60,000 nt of DNA from Bolinopsis microptera (Eukaryota > Ctenophora > Tentaculata > Lobata > Bolinopsidae). The stretch spans positions 10,967,983 through 11,027,982 of the forward strand of contig NC_087077.1 in assembly GCF_026151205.1 (NCBI RefSeq). Direction: 5' to 3'. This document shows, piece after piece, positions 30,015 through 58,691 of the stretch (positions are counted from its first letter, which is position 1; every line of letters begins with the position of its first letter). Below the pieces are notes generated by a model. It made no database searches. It saw only the letters and a program-made list of their open reading frames with translations, and had not been told where the DNA came from. The position numbers and the translations under genes are program-made.

Positions 30015-30023
30015 GCTGACGCC

Positions 30024-30288
30024 ACTCGCAGCTGTGCTGCTCGCTGTACGTCAGCGATCGAAATTTATACGCGTATCACCCGTTAAGATGTGCCACCCGA
30101 CGTGCCACACAATTTTTCTCGTTGCTCGTCGCACGTCGACGAACAACGAAGCTCGTTGCGACGCGCAATGAGCTGCCAGGCTAGGACATCGTCCTGGTCC
30201 AATTCAAATTTTGGCGAGCGATTTTCTCCAAAAATTTAATGAGGGCGCCGACTTCCACTTTGGCTAGGTTTCTTGTTACCCAGCGCGC
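30024..30288. repeat. left long TIR, inner part
   Basis: Complement of 32158-32430, with shared GTACGTCAGCGATCGAAATT and GCGACGCGCAATGAGCTGCC. Confidence 0.8.
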
Positions 30289-30991
30289 GTTCCTTAATGG
30301 GATGAGGTAAAATTAGGTAAAAAGAATCCACTGACTTGGCCAGAGTGCTTTCATAAAACTCTATTACTAGCTTGGCGTTGTAGGATTATATACTTTAATT
30401 TCGGATCGAGTGAAGCGAGTGATACACATTACTTTGATTAAACTCATGCTGATCACAATACAGTACAGGGAAGTGGGTAACACGGCTTGCAGTCGCAGCT
30501 GCAGCTCCTCGCTGGCGGTAATATTTCAATGAACATGTTTGTTTGAAAACCAGTTTTTGCTGGTACCCATAAGGGCTTTGGAACCAATATATAATAAATT
30601 GTATGAATAAATCAAATCCCCGTGGGGCACGCGACATTCAAGATCTAGTTGCAAGCACATGTTATAAAACATTGTAAAATAGCCTCAAGACCAGAACTGC
30701 ATATTGCTTGGGCTTCCAGCCCAGTTTGCTCAACAGTTCGTGGCCTACTTACCTAACCTAAAACCTTAGTGCAATGCTTGCAACAACTAAAATCCTATTC
30801 TATAACTAAGTTACCCTATTACGTATAATCTAGAAGAGTGATGCAAAAAGTCAACTGATAACGCAACACAGTCTAATCATACTCTTATCAGTAGTTCCTC
30901 TAACCTCTGTTCTCAGTTATACAAAAAGTTTTAACTCCATGAAATTAACGTCACACACATACACAAATGCTTGACTTTCTCAAATAATTAG
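30289..30991. other. interior of long-TIR element, no gene seen
   Basis: Short minus-strand open stretch at 30395-30637 without protein-like features. Possibly 3' UTR of the ORF1-like gene. Confidence 0.35.
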
Positions 30992-31867
30992 TCACTCAGC
31001 GACACAAACTTTATTGTTTTTTATGTAATATTTCTTGCTCGGGTCCTTCTTGATTCCCTCTTTCATTTCCTGTACGAGCTTTTGGCGAGAGATTCGCTCA
31101 TCCTGCGACCTGTCTGGAGATAAGTAGAGTTTGTTGTAGTTGAAATTGTAGTCTGCCACATCAACCGATTTCAAGACTTTTGCTCTGCTCAGAAATTCAC
31201 GTACAATTTCAGGATCTCGCAAAGTAACTTTTATCGGCCGTGATCGAGGGCTGTCAGACTTCTTTACTCCCACTCTCTCAATGTTTGTTATAGTCGGCCT
31301 TCCAATGAACTTCATAAAACCCCAAATATCACCCACGAGATCCCGTTCGTTCATTTCTTGCTCTTCACATTCGAGCTGTTCTGGGGCCCCGAAGATGATA
31401 AAGTTTTTCGACCGATCATCTTCTGTAATCGCCGATTTCACAGCCATTTTGATTTTAGCTGGAGAGATATCAGAAGCTACGCTGTTATTCTTCACAACAT
31501 CTGTAAACAGTTTCATTTCTGTTTTCACTGTCTCCTTCACTGAAGCTAGTTTACCAGATTTGCATTGGATGAGCTCGTTCTGAGTTTTTATCTGTTCTGA
31601 TTTCTGTTGGTCAAGCGTCTCTGCTGCTGATCTCAAAACATTTCTCGATTTACATATCATAGACCCCATCTTCAAAACTATTTCGGTTATTACATCCTTT
31701 GTAACGCCTTTTGGCTTGAACAAGTCATGAGTGAGGTCCTCTAGTTTCCTGCAATTAAGATTCGCTAAAACCGAGTCTGATAAGTCCTCAATCTGTTTCT
31801 CCAGTTCGTGAAGTGTACTGACCGAAAATTCCATATTGTGTATACTTCGTGTATAGCAAAGCTGCAC
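30992..31867 (-). CDS. LINE ORF1-like RNA-binding protein
   Basis: 291-codon frame ending KNNKVCVAE. Start may be the first Met or the in-frame MEFSVSTLHELEKQ 11 codons later. Residues ~20-135 are polar and Leu-rich, consistent with a coiled coil. Residues ~150-230 contain SKNFIIFGAPE and then RPIKVTLRDPEIVREFLSRA, the RNA-recognition-like fold of LINE ORF1 proteins. Residues ~245-291 include LYLSPDRSQDERISRQKLV, the basic C-terminal signature of these proteins. Such proteins bind element RNA and act as nucleic-acid chaperones. Here the gene stands alone between long inverted repeats with no endonuclease/RT ORF next to it. The frame is intact. Confidence 0.75.
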   Translation of the reverse strand: MQLCYTRSIHNMEFSVSTLHELEKQIEDLSDSVLANLNCRKLEDLTHDLFKPKGVTKDVITEIVLKMGSMICKSRNVLRSAAETLDQQKSEQIKTQNELIQCKSGKLASVKETVKTEMKLFTDVVKNNSVASDISPAKIKMAVKSAITEDDRSKNFIIFGAPEQLECEEQEMNERDLVGDIWGFMKFIGRPTITNIERVGVKKSDSPRSRPIKVTLRDPEIVREFLSRAKVLKSVDVADYNFNYNKLYLSPDRSQDERISRQKLVQEMKEGIKKDPSKKYYIKNNKVCVAE

Positions 31868-32157
31868 AGTAAAAGGCAGTGCAATTACCTATTTACTGAT
31901 AAGAGACAACTGATATCAACTCACAAGCGAAAAGATTGGATCAACTCACAAGCGAAAAGATTGAACTCACAAGCGAAAAGATTGAACAAGAATTAAGAAA
32001 AAGAGAATTTAAGAAAAAGAGAATTTTATTTGCCACAGAATAATCAATACATATAATATACTTCAAAAACTTCAAAATATATTGTAACATGTAAGTTCAT
32101 CTATCGTTCATAAGATGGGGTACTCTCAATAATCAAGTATATGAGTACCCGACCCGC
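31868..32157. repeat. short tandem repeats upstream of the ORF1-like gene
   Basis: AACTCACAAGCGAAAAGATTG occurs three times (about 31918-31985), followed by a doubled AAGAAAAAGAGAATTT. This is the 5' side of the ORF1-like gene and could be part of its promoter or leader. Confidence 0.6.
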
Positions 32158-33124
32158 CGCGCTGGGTAACAAGAATGAAGAAACCTAGCCAGAGTGGAAG
32201 TTGGCGCCCTCATTAAATTTTTGGAGAAAATCGCTCGCCAAAATTTGTTAGACCAGGACGATGTCCTAGCCTGGCAGCTCATTGCGCGTCGCAACGAGCT
32301 TCGTTGTTCGTCGACGTGCGACGAGCAACGAGAAAAATTGTGTGGCGCGTCGGGTGGCACATCTTAACGGGTGATACGCGTATAAATTTCGATCGCTGAC
32401 GTACAGCGAGCAGCACAGCTGCGAGTGGCGTCAGCTAATAGGATTTCATCCTACAAGGCACATCGCGTTTACCTAGCTAACCAGGTCATTTCCGCCTCCG
32501 GCGGTCGCGCGCTACTGCAAGCGAGAGGGCTATATATATAGTTAGAGCAACACATCGCGCCACAAGTCAAATATTTATCAACATCTTGACTAGCTACGCG
32601 GTCCTTTTCCGCATGCGCTCGCGCTGTGCTCAAAAATTGACGTCGTCAATCAATCAACATCAAGATTTTAGTTTTACATTTGACCTTTATGTCAAAAAAT
32701 CTTTGAATTTTCAATCGGTGGTCGATGTTACCTGAGGACCTCAGGCTTCGTCCTTACTTCGTCACAGGACGATCGGAGCTCGAAGAGCGTAGAGAGTGCT
32801 GGCTGGCGTCGTCCTGTGATGGTCGACGTATTTTTGCTTGCTGGGATCCGGCCGAATGACGCCACATGCAACGTGTAGGGTAAAACTAAAAACGCTTACC
32901 TATATGAGATAATATGACAAAAATTGTTTTGGTCACGTGACCAGTCAATGACATTGATATTTCGCTGCTGACGCGGACGGTTTGGTGGAGGGTTAGGGTC
33001 AACGTTTATACATTATAGGGTCAAAGTTAGGACTAGAGTTGTACACTATTGACATTGTGAGGGTAATGGTTAAGGTTTATCACTAGCGACCTTTTCATCT
33101 GACCACAATATTGCAAAATGCTAT
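32158..33124. repeat. right long TIR (uninterrupted)
   Basis: Uninterrupted partner of the left arm, and so the reference that shows the left arm was later split. It has AT-rich and GC-rich patches. The open stretch at 32133-32360 has no protein features. Confidence 0.8.
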
Positions 33125-35966: not shown

Positions 35967-36487
35967 CTAGTACATTATACTAGCGGTAATAAAGTCAGCA
36001 AAATTGACTTCATATTTTGCATCTAAACGCTTGACTTCCTCATAAATTTCAGCGTAAAATGGGTTTTTCTTGATGTACTTTATTTTGTTTGACCATATAG
36101 GTGGGCTGCTCGGTTTGGTCATCTGCCATCGGAACATCAGAGATCTGAACAATGAGACTCTTGAAGGTTCGTCGAGGAACTCTCCCACTCCAAACTTCAA
36201 ACCCCAGGTCTGTGCGTAGCAACTAGCATGGTCAACAGCATGTACGATGATGTGATAGAACAGTGGATCAAGCAGCTCATTTGGGAGACCTGTATGGGAG
36301 AGAGACTTCTCTACTGCCATCCTGCACTCTGTGAGATATCTTACAAAGGACAGACTTCCCTCAACAATCCCTTGTGAGAGGTCCTTGAAGGTGCATGATG
36401 GCTTCAGAGTTTCCGCAATCAAGCTTTCTCTGGTGATTTCGACTGAGTACACTCGAGTTATGAACCTGTGAATCCACGGTTTTTCTG
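35967..36487 (-). pseudogene. repeated unknown protein, copy C, C-terminal half
   Basis: Encodes residues ~196-367 of the family (from EKPWIHRFITRVYSV to ADFITASIMY), undamaged. It is cut off from its N-terminal half (46823-47409) by the LTR element. The open frame runs a few codons into the LTR, giving a spurious start. Apart from the insertion this copy looks intact, so it was disrupted recently. Confidence 0.9.
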
Positions 36488-37201
36488 TGTTGGCCTCTCG
36501 GACCAACAAGACTCTTTAATTATAGGTGGTTCTTTGCTAAAGTTCCGTTCATTTGGCTGAATTTGTCGAATCCATTTCTCTTGAGAACTCAAAGTTTTAG
36601 TATACCTCAAGTCAAATTTATTTTACGGATTGAAACAGTTAATTGAATTAACCCGTAAAACTCTTAGAGGCACAGCTACAGTGACTTTGGTCATTAGTCC
36701 AGTGAAACTTTCAAAATATAAAACACCGATAACGGGTCTACTCAAATGATCCAGGGTGTTGGTCATTAGTCCGGAAAAACTTTCAAAATATACGGACCTT
36801 CAAATGATCTAGGGTACATAGTTCCGTGTTGATTAGTTTCAATTGAGCATTAACGAGGCCACGCATCGGCGATCTAGAAGCCGTGTTTCGATGCGTCCTA
36901 ACGGTAACGACACTGCCCGACTATATCTGAATTTTAGTTGCGATAGCAACAAGTTACAATTCGACGTAGCTCTCAAATAAGCTACAAGTTCAATTCAAAT
37001 CGGAAATATAAAAAGACTCTCAATATATGAACCTTATCTCCGAAGGTATCTATTTAATGAAGTAATGGAAGTATTATTATATTTGAAGGCTTATTATACG
37101 ACTCTATCAATTGTGTTCAAGTAACCATAAATTGAGACTGATTAAAAGCTCTAAAATCTAAAATATAAAATATAAATAAACCACAACGGCAGTAGCCAAA
37201 A
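36488..37201 (+). repeat. 5' LTR
   Basis: Starts TGTTGGCCTC and ends GTAGCCAAAA; the inner edges TTGGC/GCCAA are inverted. A TATAAAAAG box is at 37007-37015 and AATAAA at 37175-37180, giving a plausible U3-R-U5 order with R starting about 37035 and a very short U5. It differs from the 3' LTR by about two 1-nt indels and one substitution seen by eye, which implies recent insertion. Confidence 0.92.
37007..37015 (+). promoter_or_regulatory. LTR TATA box
   Basis: TATAAAAAG sits about 170 nt before the LTR AATAAA signal, the expected arrangement for an LTR promoter. The second LTR has the same motif. Confidence 0.55.
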
Positions 37202-37202
37202 C

Positions 37203-37220
37203 TGGTGCCCTCCTGGTTCG
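37203..37220 (+). other. primer-binding-site candidate
   Basis: TGGTGCCCTCCTGGTTCG begins one base after the LTR end with the TGG that pairs to a tRNA CCA terminus. The complement does not give a standard T-arm spacing over its full length, so the tRNA is not named. Confidence 0.5.
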
Positions 37221-37297
37221 AATTGACGATCTCTTCATATCAAGCTTCAATTACTGAAACATCAAACTTCAATCATTGAAACATCAAGTTCAATAAA

Positions 37298-37543
37298 ATG
37301 GCTGAACTGGACAATGCAGAAGAAACACAGTTGCCAGAATCGAGAGAAGAGGACAATGAAGCAGAACCAGAAGTCTGGTCAGAGGACCCGGTACGTACCA
37401 CGGCTCATAGAAGGAAAAATGAAAAAAGGAAAGAGCCCAAAAAGAAGAAAAAGAAAGACTCTTCAGAGGGAAACCCCTCTAGCAACCGGACTTATCTGTC
37501 CAGCGAGGACGAATTTCTTGAATGTGATATACTTAGTAATTAA
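37298..37543 (+). CDS. small acidic/basic ORF of the LTR element
   Basis: 81 residues from ATG. Residues 1-30 are strongly acidic (Glu/Asp-rich), 38-58 strongly basic (Arg/Lys-rich, including six consecutive Lys), and the end is acidic again (SSEDEFLECDILSN). First ORF after the leader, where gag would normally start. It has no CCHC zinc knuckle or capsid-like length. It could be a gag remnant, a nucleic-acid-binding accessory protein, or the first exon of a spliced product. Confidence 0.5.
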   Translation: MAELDNAEETQLPESREEDNEAEPEVWSEDPVRTTAHRRKNEKRKEPKKKKKKDSSEGNPSSNRTYLSSEDEFLECDILSN

Positions 37544-37622
37544 TTTATTAATACTCAAAATCCAAAAAATCATGTATTTAACGTGTTACCGGACAGCACC
37601 AAATTAACGGGGTTATAAATAA

Positions 37623-37640
37623 ATATACCTATAGGTATAT
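37623..37640 (+). promoter_or_regulatory. 18-bp perfect palindrome at the glycoprotein start codon
   Basis: ATATACCTATAGGTATAT ends within the ATG of the following ORF (ATG at 37639). TATAAATA stands about 15 nt upstream. It may be a protein-binding site or hairpin that influences translation start; function not shown. Confidence 0.4.
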
Positions 37641-39003
37641 GTCGTTTGCAAGGACAGTGATAATACTGGTCTCCATATCGATAGCACAAACCACATTACT
37701 ACTCTGCTCTGAAGAATATTGGGGAAAGCTATACAAGCTATCAGAAAATTTAAAATGTAAAAATAAAAATTACGTCAAATGGAATATTTCCATCTCGAAA
37801 CGTAACATCGCGGAATACGAATCATCAGCCAATGCTCTGGTAATAATGTCTCGAACCTGTGAATCATATATGAATTTTGTGGGAGAAGAAACAATCACGG
37901 GTCAAAGTAAAAGAGTAATCACCGTAAACCCAGAAAGGGCTAAATATTTGATTGAAAATCGAAAATGTATTAACGAAAAAGGCGAGTATCAGACGAAATT
38001 GGTTAATAATTTTAAATGTGACTTCAAGTGGCTGGAACACAGATCTAAGACTACGACATCTTGTTATTTCTCGGATGGAGTAGTAATAGCGAATCATGAG
38101 GATACATTTACGTCCTCTTTGTCAAATATGGAGGGTTGCGACTATAGTTCAGGGTACTGTCTAACGCATAACGGAAAACACGTCACTTGGAACGTGATTG
38201 AAAATGTAAAAAGGGCTTATTTGCCTGTGGGGCAGTTCAATGCAACACAAATCGAAAAGAAGCTACTCGTACCCGAGTTGAGCATGTCATTTAATCTGCC
38301 GGAGAAAAATCCGGGTAACACTTGGATCGATAGGGATTTCCAAATAAAGGGAAGCCCAGCCCCGTATCATTTTAATCTTGAAAATGTAAATTCGAATAAT
38401 GAAAATGCGATCGAAGCAATAAGAGAGGAACTCGTCAATAAATTTAATTATCTTTTGGAATTAATTAAAAGTCCGTTGGCGCAAACGGAGTATTTGTGTA
38501 ACGTGTACAACGACATATATGGAACTGAGAGAATCCTAGCGAAAATCGATCCAACTGATTACGTACAATGGAAGTTAAATAGGACGGATGTAAAGGCTAA
38601 ATTGGTCGGAAAATTGTTAATGATTTATCCTTGTCTGCAAATTCAACATTATCGATTCATAAACGACACCAACAGGTGTTATAACGGGTTTAAAATAGAA
38701 TATAATCTGCCGGAAAATGATGAATATATTGAGGGCTATGTAGATCCTAAGTATAACATGATAATGCCTACCGCAATAGAGATAGATTGCCACAACTCTA
38801 CGACCCAATATATGATGGTGAATAATACGATTCTCGCTCAAAGTGCTCATGGGTTACACGAAATGAGGGTAAACCTTTCAAAGGTAGAAAGTATAGACAG
38901 AGTGAAACTTACTGGAATACCCATGTCTCAAGATTTTCAAAATTGGATATATAATACGTCTGAATTGAAGCACCATGATATTAGCGATTGGGAAGAGGGA
39001 TGA
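37639..39003 (+). CDS. secreted envelope-like glycoprotein (454 aa)
   Basis: ATG-started frame with an N-terminal signal peptide (residues ~1-24) and a large Cys-containing ectodomain with about eight N-glycosylation sequons (for example NATQ, NRTD, NDTN, NSTT, NLSK), most in the C-terminal half. No C-terminal membrane segment; it ends HHDISDWEEG at TGA 39001-39003, so the product would be secreted or held by a partner. Its position, signal and glycosylation resemble viral or retroelement surface glycoproteins, but I do not recognise the family. It may act with the membrane glycoprotein at 41061 as a two-component envelope; inference. The SDWE motif recurs in the readthrough extension at about 43313. 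Confidence 0.7.
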   Translation: MSFARTVIILVSISIAQTTLLLCSEEYWGKLYKLSENLKCKNKNYVKWNISISKRNIAEYESSANALVIMSRTCESYMNFVGEETITGQSKRVITVNPERAKYLIENRKCINEKGEYQTKLVNNFKCDFKWLEHRSKTTTSCYFSDGVVIANHEDTFTSSLSNMEGCDYSSGYCLTHNGKHVTWNVIENVKRAYLPVGQFNATQIEKKLLVPELSMSFNLPEKNPGNTWIDRDFQIKGSPAPYHFNLENVNSNNENAIEAIREELVNKFNYLLELIKSPLAQTEYLCNVYNDIYGTERILAKIDPTDYVQWKLNRTDVKAKLVGKLLMIYPCLQIQHYRFINDTNRCYNGFKIEYNLPENDEYIEGYVDPKYNMIMPTAIEIDCHNSTTQYMMVNNTILAQSAHGLHEMRVNLSKVESIDRVKLTGIPMSQDFQNWIYNTSELKHHDISDWEEG

Positions 39004-39839
39004 GCTCCTTATAATCCCAGTCGCTAACAGGGGGAGGCGGATCCGCGAGGATCCGGGGACACGTTAAACAAACATATAGTGCTGGAGAGTAACTGAAGGC
39101 TCCCGTGTCTAACGAAGTGTGAATTAACACACTGCCTTGGTACCCTCTAGTCGGCCGTGTTTTCGGGCTACCTGGTGTTCAGTACCTGGAGCTTGTCACC
39201 CCCAGGACTGAACATACGTCCCCAGGTAAGTGGAACACGGTGGTACGTGGACGACAGTCCACACCTAGCTAGTATCTTATCCTTTTGAACCCACAAAGGT
39301 GGAAAATTACCCAGAAAGGGAGTAAATAAAAATTTGGAAGATAAGATCTAGTGAACAGGCAAGGCAAGAGAAAACGGTCAAAGTTCATAGTTGTGACAGC
39401 TAAGTCCTCTATGGATAAGACCGTCGGTGGAACCTAGGAGTGCCAATCCCACTTACTGGTCATCCATCGCTACAGACTGGGTCCCTTGCCGGTAGGTTCA
39501 CATATGCGTAACATCCTTTTATGTAAAAGGTTGCGTGATCTGCTCAATGTACAGTCGGGCCTACATAAGCTAAAAGCGACTTGGTCTTTATGATCGTCCA
39601 GTTAGTAAGCGAATGTAGCTGTTGTGATCAAGGGGATTAAAAAGTGAACCTTGGGAAGCAATGGGCAGTTCTTTAAACTGCGGAAATGGGGTCAGCTCAG
39701 ACTGCGCCTGGTTACACATAATGATTAAGTAAGAATAAATAAGTAAGTAAGGGTGCATACAAATTAAAAGTTATGATTGAATAGAAGCAGTTGAAATGTA
39801 ACAGGAGGTCGAAGACCAGAAGTGTTAATCCTGAAGGAA
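39004..39839 (+). ncRNA. structured, GC-richer intercistronic segment
   Basis: An ~830-nt gap without a substantial ORF, clearly less AT-rich than the flanking ORFs, packed with stem-loops: 39116-39133 (AGTGTG/CACACT), the compound hairpin 39140-39246, 39247-39262 (GTGGAC/GTCCAC), an outer pair ATCTTATC/GATAAGAT spanning about 39273-39350, and CCTTTTATGTAAAAGG near 39508-39523. It lies between two ORFs of a polycistronic element, so an internal ribosome entry, packaging or export element is possible. None is proven by sequence alone. Confidence 0.5.
39140..39246 (+). ncRNA. compound hairpin, five stacked stems
   Basis: Nested pairing: GTACC 39140-39144 with GGTAC 39242-39246; CCGTGTT 39155-39161 with AACACGG 39234-39240; ACCTGG 39170-39175 with CCAGGT 39222-39227; GTTCAGT 39177-39183 with ACTGAAC 39207-39213; CCTGG 39185-39189 with CCAGG 39202-39206. 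The 3' arm contains CAGGTAAGTGG, a consensus 5' splice site, so folding could hide a donor. Confidence 0.7.
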
Positions 39840-40115
39840 ATGGAAAATGAAATTAACCATTTGACGATTGATAAAACGGAAAAACGAAATGTAAAATCCA
39901 ATTGGCGGGAATTATTTGGAATATTCGGACAAAGTAAGTTTACGATTATATTTGCTATTATTAGCAACGTACAAAGCATCGCCGTATGGTATCTAATCTG
40001 GAGGTACATTATAGTAGAATTAATTATAAGTAAATGCGTCGATCGCACCAGAGGACGGATCCCAGTTAATGAGGGCCCAATTGACCGGGATGGTCAGAAT
40101 GATACGGAAGTTTAA
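39840..40115 (+). CDS. small single-pass membrane protein of the LTR element
   Basis: ATG at 39840, 91 codons to TAA at 40113. Residues ~1-32 are polar and charged, ~34-65 strongly hydrophobic (FTIIFAIISNVQSIAVWYLI onward), and the C-terminus is polar and acidic. No signal peptide; the hydrophobic segment could act as a type II or III anchor. The frame extends upstream without another ATG. A viroporin-like or assembly protein is one option; unrecognised. Confidence 0.45.
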   Translation: MENEINHLTIDKTEKRNVKSNWRELFGIFGQSKFTIIFAIISNVQSIAVWYLIWRYIIVELIISKCVDRTRGRIPVNEGPIDRDGQNDTEV

Positions 40116-41060
40116 TTCCTAGATTGACACTGTCCTTTATATGTACTGTAGTAAATGTGTATATTTAGATATTCTCCTTAGATATTCCATCAACATAAAG
40201 AATTAATTAGCTGGAATTTTAATTATGTTAGTAAATAAGGATAAGTAGTAACAAGGCTACTATGTATGATGAACATTATTTGAAGGAACTACTATAAATA
40301 AAGTATATATATATATGAAGTATGAGTACTAGGACAGTATAACTATATTATGATTGACAATGAAACAATGATAATGAATAACAAGTGCACAATATGATAT
40401 GTAATAAGAAATAAATATGCACAATATGACAGTATTTGTATGCAATGATATTAAAGTAAATGCACTATGTATGACAAAGATTATGTTATGAAAGATAATA
40501 AAGCGCAATCATATAAAATGAAAGTGCACAAGATAGATAGATTATGAATGAAGTGTATGCGCAAAGATATGATCAAGATGAGTAACAAGTAATGCACAAT
40601 ATGGCATGATATTTAAATAAGTGATAAGCAAGCGCTATGAAAATATAAGATTAAAATAATGTGAGATATGAAACGCCATGAAACAAACCATATTTTAAAT
40701 GCAGGCCGGCCAAATGGAATGGGAACTAGATTAAATGACGTCACCCGGAAAATTTTATTTATTTATTTATTTATTTAGTTCTTAATTTATTTATTTATTT
40801 GCGTGCACGATTTGTGCCAAATCTGAGCTTAAATGTGCCAAAAGACTCTTTAGATCCAAGGCAAATTGAACGTGATTGTTGTCTGGAACCAAAATAATTA
40901 CTTTAGCATGACCTGTTTTGTATACTTTTCTAATAAAACACAAAAACCAAATTAGGCACGTAGTAATTTAGAATCTTGTATCTTTGTAACTAAAGTTACA
41001 GTTATAAAAATATATTATGACCGGTTAATGGTGGTTAATCTAAATACTTAAATAGCAAGG
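40116..41060 (+). other. AT-rich spacer with repeated GCACAATATG motif
   Basis: No ORF of note. GCACAATATG recurs near 40387, 40420 and 40595 (relative GTGCACAAGAT near 40527), and a TTTA tetranucleotide run is at about 40757-40800. The 3' part leads to the glycoprotein ATG at 41061 and could hold its promoter, splice acceptor or translation signals. Confidence 0.4.
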
Positions 41061-43166
41061 ATGCGGAAGAAAGGATATTATCAACAAGTTATCTTCTTTA
41101 TCAGTTGCTGCATAGCACTTTCAAAAGGAATGATTGAAGAAATCAATTACCACCAGGAAAAGACTGGTCTCATCTTACAAGGAATCGGAATCGTCGCACC
41201 GGAGATTACCCCTGTGCTGATATCAACATTTATAAAGATAAGAAATCCAATGAAAAATGTAAATGAATGCGAAAACATATGCAACATTGACGAAAATGTA
41301 ATTTGGGGACTGCTAACCCACGTAAAATGTAATCATGTGCACAACAAAATCGGAGATCGCCAAAATGTAATAAAGGAAATCGAGAATTCGGTGGATAAAG
41401 ACCTCGAAAATGATTCTAGACAAATGGCGGAACGATGTTTCAGAGAATGTATCAAAATACCGAAATGTAAAGCTTTCGGTGTGGAATATAGATCTGACGT
41501 CGTGATCTGCATTCTGAGAGAAACCATCCCTACGTATCATCAGGATTCTAAAGGTTCAAGCGAATTCGACATGCGATGCATGGTCGAAGATAAGAATAAA
41601 TTCTGTGGACAATATCAGTCCAGAATCAATATTCTGTTTGAAAAATCAAATGAAAATTTTGTCAATGAAACAATGACAAAAATAGAAAAACTTACTGAAT
41701 TGACGAAAAACAGGAAACAGAAAAGATTTGTTCAAGCAGCCCTTGGATTTTTTGCCGGTTCTATTCTTACTGGAGTGTTCAGTCTCTATGAACAATCGAA
41801 AATTTCAACTCAACTTAACGAGTTCTACGACCAATTTCAGGATTTCCGTAATGAAATGACGGACTATATTGAATCAGCAACGGAATTTCATGAAGGTATG
41901 TTGAAAATGTACAAAACTTTGGAATTAAATTCCCAGGAGTCATTGGAAGAATTAAGCTGTGAAATGATGAGTATAATTCGGTATAACCTGAAAAGAAATC
42001 AGCTTCAAGACTGGAAAGAGTATATATACACTCTCTCGAAAGATTTGATAGACGGCCAATTAAAAGGTCCCGTGAGTCCCACAATATTTAATGAAACGAA
42101 TATACTGGATTTGCTGAAACATAAAAGAATGGAGGACGCAATTTATGTTGACAACGTCCCTTTATTCTATCGTCTAGGCAGAATGTGGCTAGCTGATGTA
42201 AAGAAAGATGGAAAATTTTTCAATCTTCATGTGATTATATCGATACCTCAAATAAAAAGTGATGAAATGTACATCCTATATCAAGTGAACCAAGTAGGTT
42301 TGGTCAATGGTACTCAGTGCATGCGTCTGGATATACCGAATCACGTGTATCAAAAAGATGGCGAATTCTACGAATTGGAAAACGAAAATAATTGCGAGGT
42401 CCGAAGTGGGATAAAATTATGTCTGGGGAATAAAGAAAACGAAGAATCTGCAAAGAAAGCAAGGTGTTTAAACGCCGACCCAAGAATATGTAAAACGAAT
42501 TTGGAAAAATGTCAAATGCGCAATATTCAGACTAGTTCTGGTGTCATGGTCAGAGCAATACATCATTTGAAAGCATCGACGCAAGAAAGTCCTACTGAAT
42601 ACGTGGATATTTCAAATGGAAGTACGGTGAAATTTCTCAACTACGATAAATATTATCAAATAGTTGCCGACAACTACATCATTAGATCAATTAAAGAGCC
42701 AATGTTTACGAAAGAACTAGAGTTGACGAACCCCGAAAAATGGGACGAATATTTGATATCTGAAAATGAATTGCTGAAAAGAACGAATCTAAGTCAGCTC
42801 AGTGCTCATGTAGTTCAACAAAAAGAAATTGTTAAACATATCAAATCTGAAAGAATCGGACTAAATCTGACGAAGGATCTAACTCTTGTGAATTTTATAG
42901 GAATTTTAACAGTAATGATTAGCATTATAGTGGGAATCTTCCTTCTATACAGCTATTGGAAAAAACGGTTCAGGACAAGGAAAGTAGAAAAGGACATAGA
43001 ATTAGAAGAACAAAATAAAGACGAACTTTTAGAAAGCGGAAAAGATGAAGAATCTGGAGTAGATGAAACTAATTTCAGTGGTGAATATAGCGAAGGACTG
43101 CGACAAAGAGCGCCTAGTACAACTAAGGTGTATTCAGTGGACGATGTGAAAAACAGAGTCTTATGA
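41061..43166 (+). CDS. envelope-like fusion glycoprotein (701 aa)
   Basis: Signal peptide at residues ~6-22. A Cys-rich PAN/apple-like stretch lies at ~120-175 (CFRECIKIPKCKAFGVEY). A basic furin-type site RKQKR (218-222) is followed directly by a hydrophobic, Gly/Ala-rich segment (FVQAALGFFAGSILTGVF) like the fusion peptide of class I fusion proteins, then a helix-prone region (~245-290), Cys-rich C-terminal ectodomain (~440-510), one transmembrane segment (~610-631) and a ~68-residue charged cytoplasmic tail. This layout matches envelope/F-type proteins of retroelements and viruses; a specific family is not assigned. The frame ends at TGA 43164-43166, followed by CTAG, and stays open for another 315 codons. 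Confidence 0.75.
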   Translation: MRKKGYYQQVIFFISCCIALSKGMIEEINYHQEKTGLILQGIGIVAPEITPVLISTFIKIRNPMKNVNECENICNIDENVIWGLLTHVKCNHVHNKIGDRQNVIKEIENSVDKDLENDSRQMAERCFRECIKIPKCKAFGVEYRSDVVICILRETIPTYHQDSKGSSEFDMRCMVEDKNKFCGQYQSRINILFEKSNENFVNETMTKIEKLTELTKNRKQKRFVQAALGFFAGSILTGVFSLYEQSKISTQLNEFYDQFQDFRNEMTDYIESATEFHEGMLKMYKTLELNSQESLEELSCEMMSIIRYNLKRNQLQDWKEYIYTLSKDLIDGQLKGPVSPTIFNETNILDLLKHKRMEDAIYVDNVPLFYRLGRMWLADVKKDGKFFNLHVIISIPQIKSDEMYILYQVNQVGLVNGTQCMRLDIPNHVYQKDGEFYELENENNCEVRSGIKLCLGNKENEESAKKARCLNADPRICKTNLEKCQMRNIQTSSGVMVRAIHHLKASTQESPTEYVDISNGSTVKFLNYDKYYQIVADNYIIRSIKEPMFTKELELTNPEKWDEYLISENELLKRTNLSQLSAHVVQQKEIVKHIKSERIGLNLTKDLTLVNFIGILTVMISIIVGIFLLYSYWKKRFRTRKVEKDIELEEQNKDELLESGKDEESGVDETNFSGEYSEGLRQRAPSTTKVYSVDDVKNRVL

Positions 43167-43170
43167 CTAG
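43164..43170 (+). promoter_or_regulatory. stop-codon readthrough motif UGA CUAG
   Basis: The glycoprotein stop is TGA followed by CTAG. UGA-CUA(G) is an established high-efficiency readthrough context in several RNA viruses and metazoan genes. The next 315 codons in the same frame are open and encode an F-box protein with no AUG of its own before the F-box. Confidence 0.75.
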
Positions 43171-44114
43171 ACGAAGTAGAAGAATCAAATTTAAACTTGA
43201 ACTGGAACCTAAATTGCGAAAATATAAATTGTGGAAAGGTGTCAGAAAAAGAGGTAAAGAAAGCTGTAAATTTACATTACGAAAATGTAAATGATAGTGT
43301 TCAAGATGTCAGCGACTGGGAAAGTGAATCAAAGAATACAATAGACTCAAATAGTGCTTCGGATATACACGAGGAACTGGAGGAATTGAACATCGAGCAT
43401 GACGCTTCTAACGATGATAATGTGGAACAACTACACAAAGAAGAGACGAAACGAGAAACAGAAATACCAATAGAAATATGGGTGATGATATTTAATTACC
43501 TCACCATCAAGCAATTACTGAAAGTACGAGAATTAAATAAACGATTCAGTAGTTTGGTGAAGGATTACTTGCGGAACCCTACCAATGTAATAATGGAAAA
43601 TTTTAAATTTTATAGTTACGAAACGTTCTATTTAACGGAAATACTTATAGAAGATCAAATGTGTTGGACGAATATGAAAACTAAAATTGGAAAGTTCGCC
43701 ATGAAATACATGATCATGAAAGGGGTGTACTGCAGCGCCATCAATAAAGTGGAAAAACCATACTTGAGGTTTTTAAGAACACGGTGTCTACCATTGTATA
43801 CTTTCAAGGACCGGCTAAGAAGCTTCACTCCTAAAGCGTCTGACGACGAAGTGATCATAAGATGGAAGGAATATAAGAAGAATTCTTGGGCGGATATTTC
43901 CCCATTGGAAAAATCATGCATTAAAATGGAATGCAAGTTCCAAACTTTCTTAACGAAACTATATATGAATAAATATGGTACGTCTCTACCGATAACTACG
44001 AATCGGGAAAAGATCCAAAGAATAGGCAAAATGCTGAAAACCGAAGAGAATAAAAACTTCAATCTTCTTCAAGCTATAAAATATAGACCCCAGATTGAAG
44101 TTCTAATAGGGTAA
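43167..44114 (+). CDS. F-box readthrough extension (315 aa)
   Basis: In frame with the glycoprotein. It opens LDEVEESN, followed by ~90 acidic residues (including DVSDWESES). An F-box follows (EIPIEIWVMIFNYLTIKQLL, from 43461), then a ~190-residue C-terminal region shared with the ORF at 44286. The first in-frame AUG after the stop (43485) lies inside the F-box, so independent initiation would destroy the domain. Readthrough, or splicing onto an upstream AUG, is needed. F-boxes recruit Skp1/cullin ubiquitin ligases; the C-terminal part would bind the substrate. Fused to the glycoprotein it would lie in the cytoplasm below the membrane. Confidence 0.8.
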   Translation, partial: LDEVEESNLNLNWNLNCENINCGKVSEKEVKKAVNLHYENVNDSVQDVSDWESESKNTIDSNSASDIHEELEELNIEHDASNDDNVEQLHKEETKRETEIPIEIWVMIFNYLTIKQLLKVRELNKRFSSLVKDYLRNPTNVIMENFKFYSYETFYLTEILIEDQMCWTNMKTKIGKFAMKYMIMKGVYCSAINKVEKPYLRFLRTRCLPLYTFKDRLRSFTPKASDDEVIIRWKEYKKNSWADISPLEKSCIKMECKFQTFLTKLYMNKYGTSLPITTNREKIQRIGKMLKTEENKNFNLLQAIKYRPQIEVLIG

Positions 44115-44285
44115 TCAAACCGTAAAAAGGAAAAATGTAAAATGTAAAATGTAAATCAAACGTAATATGTCAAACGTAATATCACAACTCACCAACGGGT
44201 TCAAAATTATAGAAACAGGCTCTTTCGTCATTTCCATTATCACTTTAATTAAAGTTTTCTAACCACATATCGATCAGCAAAGCAA
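44115..44285 (+). other. spacer between the two F-box ORFs
   Basis: Contains three tandem AAAATGTAAA-type units (44130-44157) and two CAAACGTAATAT units (44157-44183). May carry a promoter, splice acceptor or RNA-binding site. Confidence 0.4.
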
Positions 44286-44966
44286 ATGGAAAATACATCA
44301 GAAGAGATACCTTCAAAAACAGAAGAAATTCAAAGTCTATCCATTAAAGAAGTCAAATCAGTTTCCAACTGTAATCTACCTATTGAACTATGGCATATTA
44401 TTTTGACAAGGCTGAATCTACGTGATTTACTCAAAGCCAGGTTAATTTGCAAAAGGATGGGGAAAATCGTCTCACAATATTTGCGAGACACAACAAGTGG
44501 ATATCCAGATCTCTTCAGCTTCTATAATTATGAAACATATTATCTCTTGGACATTCTAATGGAGAACGAGATGTATTGGACCAGGATACAAACGAATATT
44601 GGAAAATTCGCGATAAAACTCCTAACCATGAGAGGAGCGTATAATGCAGCAGTATTAGGACAAAAGAAATGTTATGCTCGTTTTGTCAGAACTAGATGTC
44701 TAACATTTGAAAAATACAAGTCATTATTCCCAAATGAATCGGACTGGGTTATCCTAGAACGTTGGGGAAAGTATAAACACGAGTCATGGACGAAATTGTC
44801 AAGAATCGAAAAATCAATTATTAAGATGGAATGCAAATTCGATTATTATTTAAAGTACCAATACTGTAAAGCTTATGGAACCTGGTTGTCTATTACAATG
44901 ACAGAAGAGAAAATAAAAGAAATCAGTAAAATGATGAAATACGAAGATAAGCAATACGGTAAATGA
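44286..44966 (+). CDS. F-box protein, second copy (226 aa)
   Basis: ATG-started. Residues ~1-32 are Ser/Glu-rich; an F-box follows (NLPIELWHIILTRLNLRDLL) at ~35-72. The C-terminal region parallels the first copy throughout: YETYYLLDILMENEMYW, GKFAIKLL, RFVRTRC, and EKSIIKMECKF with YGTWL. The two are clearly paralogous but diverged, so an old tandem duplication within the element. Unlike the first copy it has its own AUG and no fusion partner, so it would be a free cytoplasmic adaptor. Virally encoded F-box proteins are known to degrade host defence factors; the target here is unknown. Confidence 0.8.
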   Translation: MENTSEEIPSKTEEIQSLSIKEVKSVSNCNLPIELWHIILTRLNLRDLLKARLICKRMGKIVSQYLRDTTSGYPDLFSFYNYETYYLLDILMENEMYWTRIQTNIGKFAIKLLTMRGAYNAAVLGQKKCYARFVRTRCLTFEKYKSLFPNESDWVILERWGKYKHESWTKLSRIEKSIIKMECKFDYYLKYQYCKAYGTWLSITMTEEKIKEISKMMKYEDKQYGK

Positions 44967-46092
44967 GTTCATCGCATAACTATGCGTGAATCTGCATTTA
45001 GATAAAGAATGATGAAAAATGTAAATATTGAAAAATTTGAAACTTAAAATATAAAACTGAAAACGGGCAGGTTTAAAGATGAGGAAGTTAGATAAGTAAA
45101 GGATCGACCTCAGCCCAACTGAGATCCTAAATAATAAATATATGTATACAGTTTAAATTGTGAAAATTATTATAAGACTTCAATAAGTTAAACATTTATT
45201 AAGTTAAGTAAGAAATTAATTATAAATAAGTAAGAATAAGTTAAAAGGCAAATAAGTTAAATATCCGATAAATTGAAAGTAGTTTGTCAAAGGACTATTA
45301 ATTTAGTACCATTTCAGAGCCTTTTAAGTTTGTTGAAGTCTACTGACCAAAATGGCCCATCCAGGGGTTATGGTCAAGTTATTTCATAGGTTCTTAAATA
45401 GTTCTTGAATAGAAAATTACAAGCTAGTAGATCTTCTCGTTTAGCCGGTCTATTGAGATTCTGGATCGCAACCGTATCCCCTCTCTGCACAGGAACATTT
45501 CCTACGAAGACCGTAGACGCATCGTTATCGGGACGTAACCCGAATCTGTTTCGTATCGGGACGTAACCCCCGTTGAGAAGAAGAAGAAAGAAGAAAGAAG
45601 AGGGAATGGAAAGAATTATAATTGTAGCAATTCGTTACCGGGACGTAACCCGACTTTAAAAGCATCGCAATCAGGGCGTAACCTGACCCCCGTTGTCGTC
45701 GAAGAAAGAAGACCAAAGAAAAGGAAAGGAAAGGAAGGAAAAGAAAAGAAAAGAAAGATACTACTTGTAATAGTGGTGAGCGGCCCTAATGGCGAATTAG
45801 GTATTAATATATGTTAACAGTTTTAAGAAATGTTGATCAGCCCTAATGGCTAAATTATAGTAAATATTCTCCTATTTCAAGGAGAGGAAAACTTTGGTGT
45901 TAGATGATGATTATAATTAGGAGACCTAGGTTCTAAAATTCAGAGTCTTAAAATTTAAGGATGTCAAGGAAAATTTAATAGAAGAAAAGAAGAAGACGAA
46001 AAAGAAAAAGAAATATTTCATTAGAATAGTACGAGTAAGCCCTCGGTTGGCGAATCGGCTAATCGGTGAAATGATCAAATTAAAAACTCTAT
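44967..46092 (+). other. 3' non-coding region of the LTR element
   Basis: AT-rich, with no convincing ORF. Notable for four CGGGACGTAACCCG stem-loop repeats (45529-45686) and purine-rich GAAGAAGAAAG tracts around 45575-45600 and 45705-45760. Confidence 0.45.
45529..45686 (+). ncRNA. four small stem-loops, CGGG-ACGTAA-CCCG
   Basis: Copies at 45529-45542, 45557-45569, 45639-45652 and 45671-45686. Three have CGGG/CCCG stems. The fourth has TCAGG/CCTGA, so a G-C pair is replaced by A-U on both sides while the GTAA loop is kept. GCCCTAATGGC repeats follow at about 45784 and 45840. Confidence 0.65.
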
Positions 46093-46106
46093 GAAAAAGG
46101 GGATCG
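46093..46106 (+). other. polypurine tract candidate
   Basis: GAAAAAGGGGATCG lies directly before the 3' LTR, the position and composition expected for plus-strand priming. Confidence 0.65.
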
Positions 46107-46822
46107 TGTTGGCCTCTCGGACCAACAAGACTCTTTAATTATAGGTGGTTCTTTGCTAAAGTTCCGTTCATTTGGCTGAATTTGTCGAATCCATTTCTCT
46201 TGAGAACTCAAAGTTTTAGTATACCTTCAAGTCAAATTTATTTTACGGATTGAAACAGTTAATTGAATTAACCCGTAAAACTCTTAGAAGGCACAGCTAC
46301 AGTGACTTTGGTCATTAGTCCAGTGAAACTTTCAAAATATAAAACACCGATAACGGGTCTACTCAAATGATCCAGGGTGTTGGTCATTAGTCCGGAAAAA
46401 CTTTCAAAATATACGGACCTTCAAATGATATAGGGTACATAGTTCCGTGTTGATTAGTTTCAATTGAGCATTAACGAGGCCACGCATCGGCGATCTAGAA
46501 GCCGTGTTTCGATGCGTCCTAACGGTAACGACACTGCCCGACTATATCTGAATTTTAGTTGCGATAGCAACAAGTTACAATTCGACGTAGCTCTCAAATA
46601 AGCTACAAGTTCAATTCAAATCGGAAATATAAAAAGACTCTCAATATATGAACCTTATCTCCGAAGGTATCTATTTAATGAAGTAATGGAAGTATTATTA
46701 TATTTGAAGGCTTATTATACGACTCTATCAATTGTGTTCAAGTAACCATAAATTGAGACTGATTAAAAGCTCTAAAATCTAAAATATAAAATATAAATAA
46801 ACCACAACGGCAGTAGCCAAAA
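46107..46822 (+). repeat. 3' LTR
   Basis: Near-identical to 36488-37201, with TATA box and AATAAA (46796-46801) in the same places. It is followed by TCTG and the N-terminal half of the interrupted gene. Confidence 0.92.
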
Positions 46823-47409
46823 TCTGTTCGCGTCCTCATATCGGTAACGGGACTTGTTGGACTTCTTGTGAGTGCGTTGTGAAGAGGAAGTGACGTCTTG
46901 GTTGATGGTAGTAAGGCTGAAATATTGTTATCAACAATGTACTTAGTCAGACTGTTCGAATAAAGGTGAAATTTAGGATGTGCACTCGCCGTGTGGTAGA
47001 AGAAGATGGCTTCCATCATCAGACATCTGTTTGCTATCTTCTCCCCATTCAAATGGAATGCCTCTATTGTAGCTCTTCCTCTGGCATCCTTCTTGAACAA
47101 CATCTTTATACCCTTCACCGTTGCCGACGATAAACAGGACTTAAGCTGGCAGTCTTCAACTTCAAACGTGCTCCTATTACTTCCCGAATTAACCAACAAC
47201 GCCATCGTTGTGTTTTCCAGGTAGTCGACTATATCGTCATCGGTTGGCTCTTTGAGAATAAAGAGGTAGATAACGAAGTTGTAAATCAGTCCAGCCACAA
47301 GTTTAGCTATCATCCATGGAGCTTGGAAAAGTTTGTGTTCCCAGAATATCCACTTGTATTTCTCCTCGAAGTCACAATTGACAATTGACTGTTTGATGAG
47401 CCTTCCCAT
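46823..47409 (-). pseudogene. repeated unknown protein, copy C, N-terminal half
   Basis: Encodes residues 1 to ~196 of the family (MGRLIKQSIVNCDFEEK to DMRTRT) before running into the LTR. The first ~100 codons differ from copies A and B at many sites (for example NSGSNRSTFEVEDCQL for NSGAEGSTFEVKDCKL), whereas the rest is almost identical. That mosaic suggests gene conversion. The upstream acceptor-like TATTCTCAG is kept. Confidence 0.85.
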
Positions 47410-57546: not shown

Positions 57547-57987
57547 ATCTCCGAAATTGGAGAGATGATGTTGGTAGTGGAGTTCTGGTACCAATAACAC
57601 TCATAATGGAACCTATACAGATAAAAACTACAACAACTCCCGGTTCTAATGAGCTACTGAGTATCCTCCTTTACACTTTTACATCCAAGATAAGTGTGAG
57701 ATTTACAGATCCGATGCAATATTGGGTGACATCTTGCACGACTGATTGGGTTGACTTTACATGTGATGCACTGGATGATAATGATATCCGAATATGGACA
57801 TTTTCAAGGGATATCAATACTTCTATTAAGATAACATGTAACGAAAAAGTAGTGGTCGATTTTGATAAGGAGTTTGGAGATCAAGATGAGTATGGGACTT
57901 GTAAGAGTGATTGGTTTTCTGAACAAGATGAGGATAAGTTTTGGATTGATCCAGAGACAACAGTTTCTGGTTACTCTTTGAAAGCTG
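57547..57987 (+). CDS. modular extracellular protein, exon with domain X, copy 2
   Basis: Acceptor ATTTCGTAG, donor GTAAGTTG. Phase 1 in and out. Starts (D)LRNWRDDVGSGV and continues with IKTTTTPGSNELLS, SCTTDWVDFTCD, IWTFSRDIN, ITCNEKVVVDFD and an acidic end. Homologous to copies 1 and 3. Its 3' end is the first unit of the tandem array that fills the next intron. Confidence 0.7.
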
Positions 57988-58548
57988 GTAAGTTGTGGTG
58001 TCTTTCCGGAGGTATTGTTTCAGAATCGTATTACTATTGATATAGCTGGTAAGTTGTGGTGTCAGCTTTCCGGAGGTATTGTTTCAGAATCGTATTACTA
58101 TTGATATAGCTGGTAAGTTGTGGTGTCTTTCCGGAGGTATTGTTTCAGAATCGTATTACTATTGATATAGCTGGTAAGTTGTGGTGTCTTTCCGGAGGTA
58201 TTGTTTCAGAATCGTATTACTATTGATATAGCTGGTAAGTTGTGGTGTCTTTCCGGAGGTTATATTGTTTCAGAATCGTATTACTATTGATATAGCTGGT
58301 AAGTTGTGGTGTCTTTCCGGAGGTATTGTTTCAGAATCGTATTACTATTGATATAGCTGGTAAGTTGTGGTGTCTTTCCGGAGGTTATATTGTTTCAGAA
58401 TCGTATTACTATTGATATAGCTGGTAAGTTGTGGTGTCTTTCCGGAGGTATTGTTTCAGAATCGTATTACTATTGATATAGCTGGTAAGTTGTGGTGTCT
58501 TTCCGGAGGTATTGTTTCAGAATCGTATTACTATTGATATAGCTATTT
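57984..58548 (+). repeat. 61/64-bp tandem array that repeats a 5' splice site
   Basis: Nine AGCTGGTAAGTTGTGG units: GT dinucleotides at 57988, 58049, 58113, 58174, 58235, 58299, 58360, 58424 and 58485. Unit lengths are 61 or 64 bp, the extra three being CAG or TAT. Each unit also contains TATTGTTTCAG, a good 3' splice site, 25 nt before the next donor. The last unit ends AGCTATTTTA without a donor. Confidence 0.92.
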
Positions 58549-58691
58549 TATATTAGATTGTGACTGCAGTATTTTATTTGTATCTAGCAATTATTTCGAA
58601 GTATAATTTCGAAATCATTCCTGATCGATAGGGATATAGTATTTAAATTTTGCGTCACTTGTATGTGCTAACATATTCAATATCAAATCAG

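What the first reader, a model, noticed from the sequence alone, without database searches (positions are those of the whole stretch)
43164..44114. Predicted UGA-CUAG readthrough fusing an F-box to the tail of an envelope-like glycoprotein
The 701-codon glycoprotein ends in TGA followed by CTAG. The same frame then stays open for 315 codons holding a complete F-box protein. No AUG occurs between the stop and the F-box interior (first AUG 43485). UGA-CUAG is an established readthrough context. The expected result is a minor product with an extracellular fusion machine and a cytoplasmic SCF-recruiting domain, an arrangement I do not know from described envelopes.
Basis: partly seen in the sequence, partly recalled or inferred. 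Interest (0 to 1): 0.9.

Follow-up and report, generated by a model that had tools for sequence, protein, structure and literature searches.

The report
Leaky-stop envelope gene running into F-box
A young virus-like jumping element carries an envelope gene whose leaky-type stop codon leads straight into a protein-destruction adaptor (F-box) with no start codon of its own, which suggests that some envelope molecules are made with that adaptor attached inside the cell.

Summary
Window 41061-43166 encodes a 701-aa envelope-like glycoprotein; its TGA is followed by CTAG, and the same frame stays open for 315 codons holding an F-box domain (PF00646, E 1.4e-5). The first in-frame ATG (43485) lies inside the F-box. 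The gene sits in a young LTR element (36488-46826; one mismatch between LTRs) in which I found no gag or pol; it also carries a gB-like glycoprotein and a second F-box ORF with its own ATG. The 100 codons between stop and F-box look coding from the stop onward, and acceptor-like sites there are poor. Readthrough is the best explanation (about 0.55). Conservation cannot prove it: 10 of 10 copies share TGACTAG but are 98.9-100% identical. Against an ancient readthrough gene, a second family in the same genome (L057/L058, envelope 34% identical) has TAG-TTTT and a separate F-box ORF with its own ATG behind a good acceptor, and five F-box proteins elsewhere are predicted from their own Met. The envelope/F-box pairing seems older; the fused arrangement is specific to this family. 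The F-box protein may also carry an HMG-box-like fold (modest model match).

The parts
36488..37204 (+). 5' LTR (boundary approximate)
   Evidence: matches 46107-46826 with 1 mismatch and 3 gaps over 721 columns; tRNA-primer-site-like CTGGTGCC follows (by inspection)
37298..37543 (+). small 81-aa ORF with a donor-like GTACGT after base 37390; possible leader exon
   Evidence: ORF, donor score 5.6; role inferred
37639..39003 (+). gB-like glycoprotein ORF, interrupted in this copy
   Evidence: PF00606 E 3.5e-5, below the curated cut-off
38990..39824 (+). insertion seen in the window copy
   Evidence: 7 of 9 other copies run from 38989 to 39825 without it; the other 2 (L049, L051) do not align across it
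41061..43166 (+). envelope-like glycoprotein ORF (701 aa): signal peptide, basic RKQKR cleavage-like site with hydrophobic stretch, TM near 42894-42959, 68-aa cytoplasmic tail
   Evidence: relative P0005 matches PF00523 E 6.3e-6, below cut-off; features by inspection
43164..43170 (+). UGA-CUAG stop context
   Evidence: identical in 10 of 10 copies, the window's own included
43167..43466 (+). acidic linker, open frame without Met
   Evidence: 19 E and 9 D of 100
43167..44114 (+). F-box 1 frame, 315 codons, contiguous with the envelope frame
   Evidence: open in 8 of 10 copies
43461..43565 (+). F-box domain
   Evidence: PF00646 E 1.4e-5
43746..43979 (+). HMG-box-like three-helix fold (probable)
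43485..43487 (+). first in-frame ATG, inside the F-box core
44286..44966 (+). F-box 2 ORF (226 aa) with its own ATG
   Evidence: PF00646 E 2.5e-7; 46% identical to F-box 1; P0006 96% identical with the same first Met
46107..46826 (+). 3' LTR (boundary approximate)

Best explanation
The F-box 1 frame is most likely expressed by stop-codon readthrough of the envelope UGA-CUAG. Most ribosomes stop and make the ordinary 701-aa type I glycoprotein; a minority continue and make the same glycoprotein with a cytoplasmic extension of about 315 residues: an acidic linker, an F-box, and an HMG-box-like domain. The F-box would recruit SKP1-cullin (SCF) ubiquitin ligase to the cytoplasmic face of membranes that hold the envelope. 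The likely use is removal of a host membrane or membrane-proximal protein that meets the envelope or the assembly site (receptor or restriction factor). Shown: frame, context, domain, lack of an AUG, poor acceptors, family-specific arrangement. Inferred: readthrough itself, SKP1 binding, topology, target.
For: Frame contiguity and context. Extension open (0.035% of Markov trials) and coding-like from the first 60 nt. The AUG-43485 product would lack residues invariant in 7 of 7 aligned sequences. Best acceptor in the extension scores -5.1; 2 of 86 overlapping 300-nt windows of the element do as poorly, and these may overlap the extension itself; the acceptor before the family-B F-box scores 6.4. 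Post-stop open length 315 against 1-42 codons in 16 relatives. UGA_CUAG gives 6-17% for four mammalian mRNAs and 6.7% for human VDR in cell-culture reporters (PMC5868278, abstract and passages).
Against: Copies are too young to test conservation. Family B, the one related envelope/F-box family whose DNA I could read, has TAG-TTTT and a separate F-box with its own ATG. P0006-P0010 all start with a Met shortly before the F-box, though predicted proteins tend to begin with Met by construction. The extension has 0 synonymous and 6 non-synonymous changes, which unconstrained sequence would also give; F-box 1 itself changes as fast (14 in 645 nt, 5 of them silent, one a stop). F-box 2 and the envelope also have only weak acceptors just before their ATG (-1.4 and -4.0), so a weak score does not exclude splicing. 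RNA structure after the stop is weak (z -1.66). PMC12233894 (abstract) says that effects of the wider context are not transferable between contexts. PMC5100048 (passage) conjectures abundant readthrough for insects and crustacea but not outside; the host here is unnamed. An HMG-box-like domain is usually nuclear (general knowledge), odd for a membrane-tethered product. No RNA or protein data.
Confidence: 0.55

Rival explanations
1. F-box 1 is the body of a spliced subgenomic mRNA: an upstream exon that supplies the AUG is joined to an acceptor inside 43167-43466, so the envelope stop is never met.
For: Family B shows this kind of layout: separate F-box ORF, own AUG, strong acceptor-like site at L058:2994. 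Donor-like sites lie after 37390 (score 5.6, in the small ORF) and after 41895 (score 5.3, in the envelope); by arithmetic the second would be in phase with the AG of the CTAG itself (exon from 43171). P0004 is a predicted protein joining envelope to an F-box-1-like C-terminus (BLASTP 6e-6), which could be a splice, a deletion or a gene-model join.
Against: No acceptor above -5.1 in the extension; 2 of 86 overlapping windows of the element as poor. The 37390 donor is phase 0, and the best phase-0 acceptor scores -7.2. It would not by itself explain why the frame is coding-like right up to the stop. The score uses recalled generic frequencies, and sites before F-box 2 and the envelope also score low.
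Confidence: 0.25
2. F-box 1 is translated from a non-AUG codon (CTG at 43377, gaggaaCTGg, has a fair context) or internally on an mRNA of unknown start.
For: In-frame near-cognate codons exist; CTG 43377 has G at -3 and G at +4.
Against: Seven out-of-frame ATGs lie between the stop and 43485; coding-like signal also lies upstream of 43377; no transcript start is known.
Confidence: 0.1
3. F-box 1 is a decaying or unexpressed duplicate of F-box 2; the contiguity is an accident and F-box 2 does the work.
For: F-box 2 has its own ATG and a near-identical predicted protein elsewhere. F-box 1 is broken in 2 of 10 copies against 1 of 10 for F-box 2 and 0 of 10 for the envelope, and it shows the most changes per base with the extension.
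Against: F-box 1 is only 46% identical to F-box 2 yet open in 8 of 10 copies and keeps the F-box match. Long openness without Met is unlikely for a dead stretch.
Confidence: 0.1

Closest known systems
LTR retrotransposons that captured a paramyxovirus-F-like envelope (bdelloid TelKA clade, PMC5408684; abstract and section 3.2 read)
   Same: LTR element with a class-I-type fusion glycoprotein; a relative of this envelope has a sub-threshold match to PF00523
   Different: No gag or pol found here; a second, gB-like glycoprotein; F-box ORFs. The paper's text holds no 'f-box' (0 occurrences, listing)
Pao elements with chuvirus glycoproteins ('Anakin', PMC7642597; abstract read)
   Same: capture of a viral glycoprotein by an LTR element; the gB-like ORF here may be of that sort (recalled, not tested)
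   Different: includes complete, likely autonomous Pao copies; no F-box or readthrough in the abstract
UGA_CUAG readthrough genes (OPRL1, OPRK1, AQP4, MAPK10, VDR; PMC5868278, abstract and passages read)
   Same: identical seven-base stop context; open, coding-like extension
   Different: vertebrate cellular genes with reporter data and, for four, vertebrate-wide conservation; here neither
Viral adaptors that recruit SCF (polerovirus P0, nanovirus Clink, lentiviral Vpu; recalled, from no call)
   Same: would act by steering an SCF ligase to a host protein
   Different: none is a readthrough extension of a fusion glycoprotein as far as I recall

Membership tests
F-box protein | F-box domain above curated cut-off | tested here: met
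   PF00646 25.2 bits against cut-off 20.5; 7 of 7 aligned sequences match PF00646 at E up to 10, best 2.5e-7
F-box protein | binds SKP1 in an SCF complex | not testable with these tools
   core P, E and W kept; the alignment profile's matches to two F-box chains of solved SCF parts are weak (1ldk_E E 0.63, 1fs1_A E 0.83) and rank below unrelated chains
UGA-CUAG readthrough gene | UGA followed by CUAG | tested here: met
UGA-CUAG readthrough gene | extension with coding character in frame 0 | tested here: met
   caveat: 22 of 310 open stretches elsewhere in the window score as high
UGA-CUAG readthrough gene | context conserved across diverged relatives | tested here: inconclusive
   10 of 10 copies alike but 98.9-100% identical; family B has TAG-TTTT with a separate F-box
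UGA-CUAG readthrough gene | measured readthrough | not testable with these tools
   no translation data
class I viral fusion glycoprotein (paramyxovirus-F-like) | profile match to Fusion_gly PF00523 | tested here: inconclusive
   1 of 5 relatives (P0005), E 6.3e-6, 25.2 bits under cut-off 29.8; window protein no such match; no PDB sequence match; fold model poor, pLDDT 38.6
HMG-box domain | three-helix HMG fold | tested here: inconclusive
autonomous LTR retrovirus/retrotransposon | gag and pol genes | tested here: not met
   Pfam scans of the element's main ORFs found no gag or pol domain; between 37205 and 46106 no further ORF of at least 150 codons is listed; broken pol pieces were not looked for frame by frame
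autonomous LTR retrovirus/retrotransposon | paired LTRs | tested here: met

The most novel reading that the evidence does not exclude
An envelope-bearing LTR element with no polymerase of its own makes, through a leaky UGA-CUAG, a membrane-anchored envelope isoform whose cytoplasmic end is an SCF adaptor with an HMG-like module: a fusion glycoprotein that carries its own ubiquitin-ligase recruiter, evolved from an ancestor in which the F-box was a separate spliced gene.
Probability: 0.4. Interest if true: 0.85.

Novelty: new variant of a known kind. Interest (0 to 1): 0.62.

Why it matters
If true, it is a way for a viral glycoprotein to bring a ubiquitin ligase to the membrane as a minor isoform set by termination efficiency, and an example of a separate accessory gene becoming a readthrough tail. 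The two families in one genome (separate F-box against fused frame) make that step testable. It would also add an F-box module to the genes that LTR elements have captured.

Tried and rejected
Initiation at AUG 43485: rejected as the main route because it removes residues invariant in 7 of 7 aligned sequences. Termination-reinitiation at the overlapping AUGA (ATG 43163): that ATG is in another frame, 43 aa. The longer envelope frames of other families (905 and 856 aa, L054-L056) as sense-codon fusions to an F-box: no F-box in Pfam for L054, the only one scanned, and no significant BLAST match of F-box 1 or 2 to these frames. RNA stimulator after the stop: weak. Rfam: 0 matches at gathering scores in 36400-46900. 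IMG/VR scan with the envelope alignment: 13 pattern matches, no relative. First protein search with F-box 1: none of 602 candidates scored; the alignment search then found five. Envelope fold: model too poor to use. Foldseek 'pdb' search not run. gB-like protein against the whole genome: not completed, so its relatives are unknown. A nuclear-type HMG-like fold in a membrane-tethered product remains awkward.

Full report
What is there. The window lies in a 264.7-Mb assembly of an unnamed organism, a eukaryote by inference. An LTR element spans about 36488-46826: its two LTRs match over 721 columns with one mismatch and three gaps, so the insertion is young. Twenty-seven LTR matches occur in the genome, the window's two included. 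Inside, left to right: a small ORF (37298-37543), a gB-like glycoprotein ORF (37639-39003; PF00606 E 3.5e-5, below cut-off), an envelope-like glycoprotein (41061-43166), the F-box 1 frame (43167-44114) and F-box 2 (44286-44966). I found no gag or pol among the ORFs scanned.

The envelope ends in TGA followed by CTAG, the frame continues for 315 codons, and the first in-frame ATG is at 43485, inside the F-box core.

Is the envelope stop real? Five relatives (46-65% identity) came from the protein collection. P0001, P0002 and P0003 end with the same GLRNR-type tail; P0005 has it too but stops a few residues short, perhaps at a contig end. The family-B envelope aligns to residue 700 of 701. So 701 aa is a normal end, not a truncation. 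P0004 lacks that tail and ends instead in a piece like the C-terminus of F-box 1 (BLASTP 6e-6); as its longest contig is 2,085 bases this may be a deletion, a splice or a gene-model join, but it puts envelope and F-box sequence together in another source.

Is the extension translated? The 300 nt between stop and F-box are open where 0.035% of Markov sequences would be. Frame 0 scores highest of the forward frames in all five 60-nt blocks, the first after the stop included; the third is nearly tied, and 22 of 310 open stretches elsewhere in the window score as high, so codon use alone is weak. The linker is acidic (19 E, 9 D of 100). Among ten copies (nine besides the window's own) it has 6 changes, all amino-acid-changing, three of them shared by 6-7 copies; envelope 41530-43163 has 13 in 1634 nt (7 silent), F-box 1 has 14 in 645 nt (5 silent, one a stop in a frame-broken copy), F-box 2 has 9 in 678 nt (2 silent, one a stop). 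That fits a loosely constrained tail and equally unconstrained DNA. PMC5100048 (section 13 read) reports weaker purifying selection in readthrough regions than in first ORFs of flies and mosquitoes.

How could the F-box be reached? From AUG 43485 it would lack the P, E and W invariant in 7 of 7 aligned sequences. By splicing it would need an acceptor in the extension; with a generic score (recalled frequencies) the best is -5.1, and 2 of 86 overlapping 300-nt windows of the element are as poor (they may overlap the extension), while the family-B F-box has one at 6.4. F-box 2 and the envelope have only -1.4 and -4.0 just before their ATGs, so low scores do not exclude splicing. Readthrough needs only the stop that is there. 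UGA_CUAG gave 6-17% in four mammalian mRNAs and 6.7% for VDR (PMC5868278, passages). PMC12233894 (abstract and passages) calls UGA CUA G the high-readthrough motif but finds strong effects of the wider context, so the level here cannot be read from the motif.

Evidence from relatives. 10 of 10 copies keep TGACTAG but are 98.9-100% identical in their main BLAST pieces, so this is little more than common descent. F-box 1 is open in 8 of 10, the envelope in 10 of 10 (one with a short in-frame loss), F-box 2 in 9 of 10. The whole-genome envelope search, a lower bound, gave 40 places: 10 copies of this family and 30 others. I fetched 18 stretches that hold 20 of those 30 places and scored stop contexts in 16 of the 18; L059 and L064 were dropped because their envelope frames are broken. 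None of the 16 has TGACTAG, and their post-stop frames run 1-42 codons; several of the 16 are near-duplicates, so the independent number is smaller. Family B (L057 and L058, 99.6% alike) has an envelope 34% identical, stop TAG-TTTT, and about 430 nt further its own F-box ORF with ATG at L058:3058; the L057 copy of that ORF is frame-broken. A tree puts the window envelope, P0001-P0005 and family B in one group (100/99). P0006-P0010 are F-box relatives with a Met shortly before the F-box; as predicted proteins they tend to start with Met by construction. The common state thus looks like a separate F-box ORF; the AUG-less, stop-adjacent F-box 1 is the exception. This is evidence against an ancient readthrough gene and leaves a derived one open.

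Mechanism. Most likely a minority of envelope molecules carry a cytoplasmic SCF adaptor (inferred). The target is unknown; a receptor or a membrane-proximal restriction factor is the natural guess. An HMG-like module at a membrane is awkward, and a spliced, free F-box 1 would fit it better; this keeps the splicing rival at 0.25.

Novelty. Searches of the held library for F-box with LTR retrotransposon, envelope and readthrough (2 papers), F-box with endogenous retrovirus, insect, LTR retrotransposon and env gene (none), F-box protein with retrotransposon, envelope, captured and insect, errantivirus, envelope and F-box (none), additional ORFs with F-box and ubiquitin (12 of 21 shown) and env readthrough (11 of 12 shown) listed no paper whose title or abstract start describes this. 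The library is open-licence PMC only. Captured F-like envelopes are known (PMC5408684, abstract and section 3.2), as are captured chuvirus glycoproteins (PMC7642597, abstract).

Noticed in passing
36488-46826: An LTR element with two different viral-type glycoprotein ORFs (gB-like and class-I-like) and two F-box ORFs but no gag or pol found; ten near-identical copies of the envelope/F-box part, so it is presumably moved by a polymerase from elsewhere.
   Followed up: partly
38990-39824: Insertion in the window copy that interrupts the gB-like ORF; 7 of 9 other copies lack it, the other 2 do not align across it.
   Followed up: partly
L054-L056: Other envelope families in the same genome have very long charged cytoplasmic tails of unknown type (frames of 905 and 856 aa).
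   Followed up: partly
43737-44015: F-box 1 C-terminal part gives a sub-threshold Pfam match to Syd/SUKH-2 (E 0.0014; 0.00051 with the longer piece), in 1 of 7 aligned sequences, probably chance.
   Followed up: no
30015-32435: Inverted repeat pair (188 and 70 nt arms, 97-99% complementary) about 2 kb apart: probably another mobile element.
   Followed up: no
57952-58605: Minisatellite-like array with 61-64 nt spacing.
   Followed up: no
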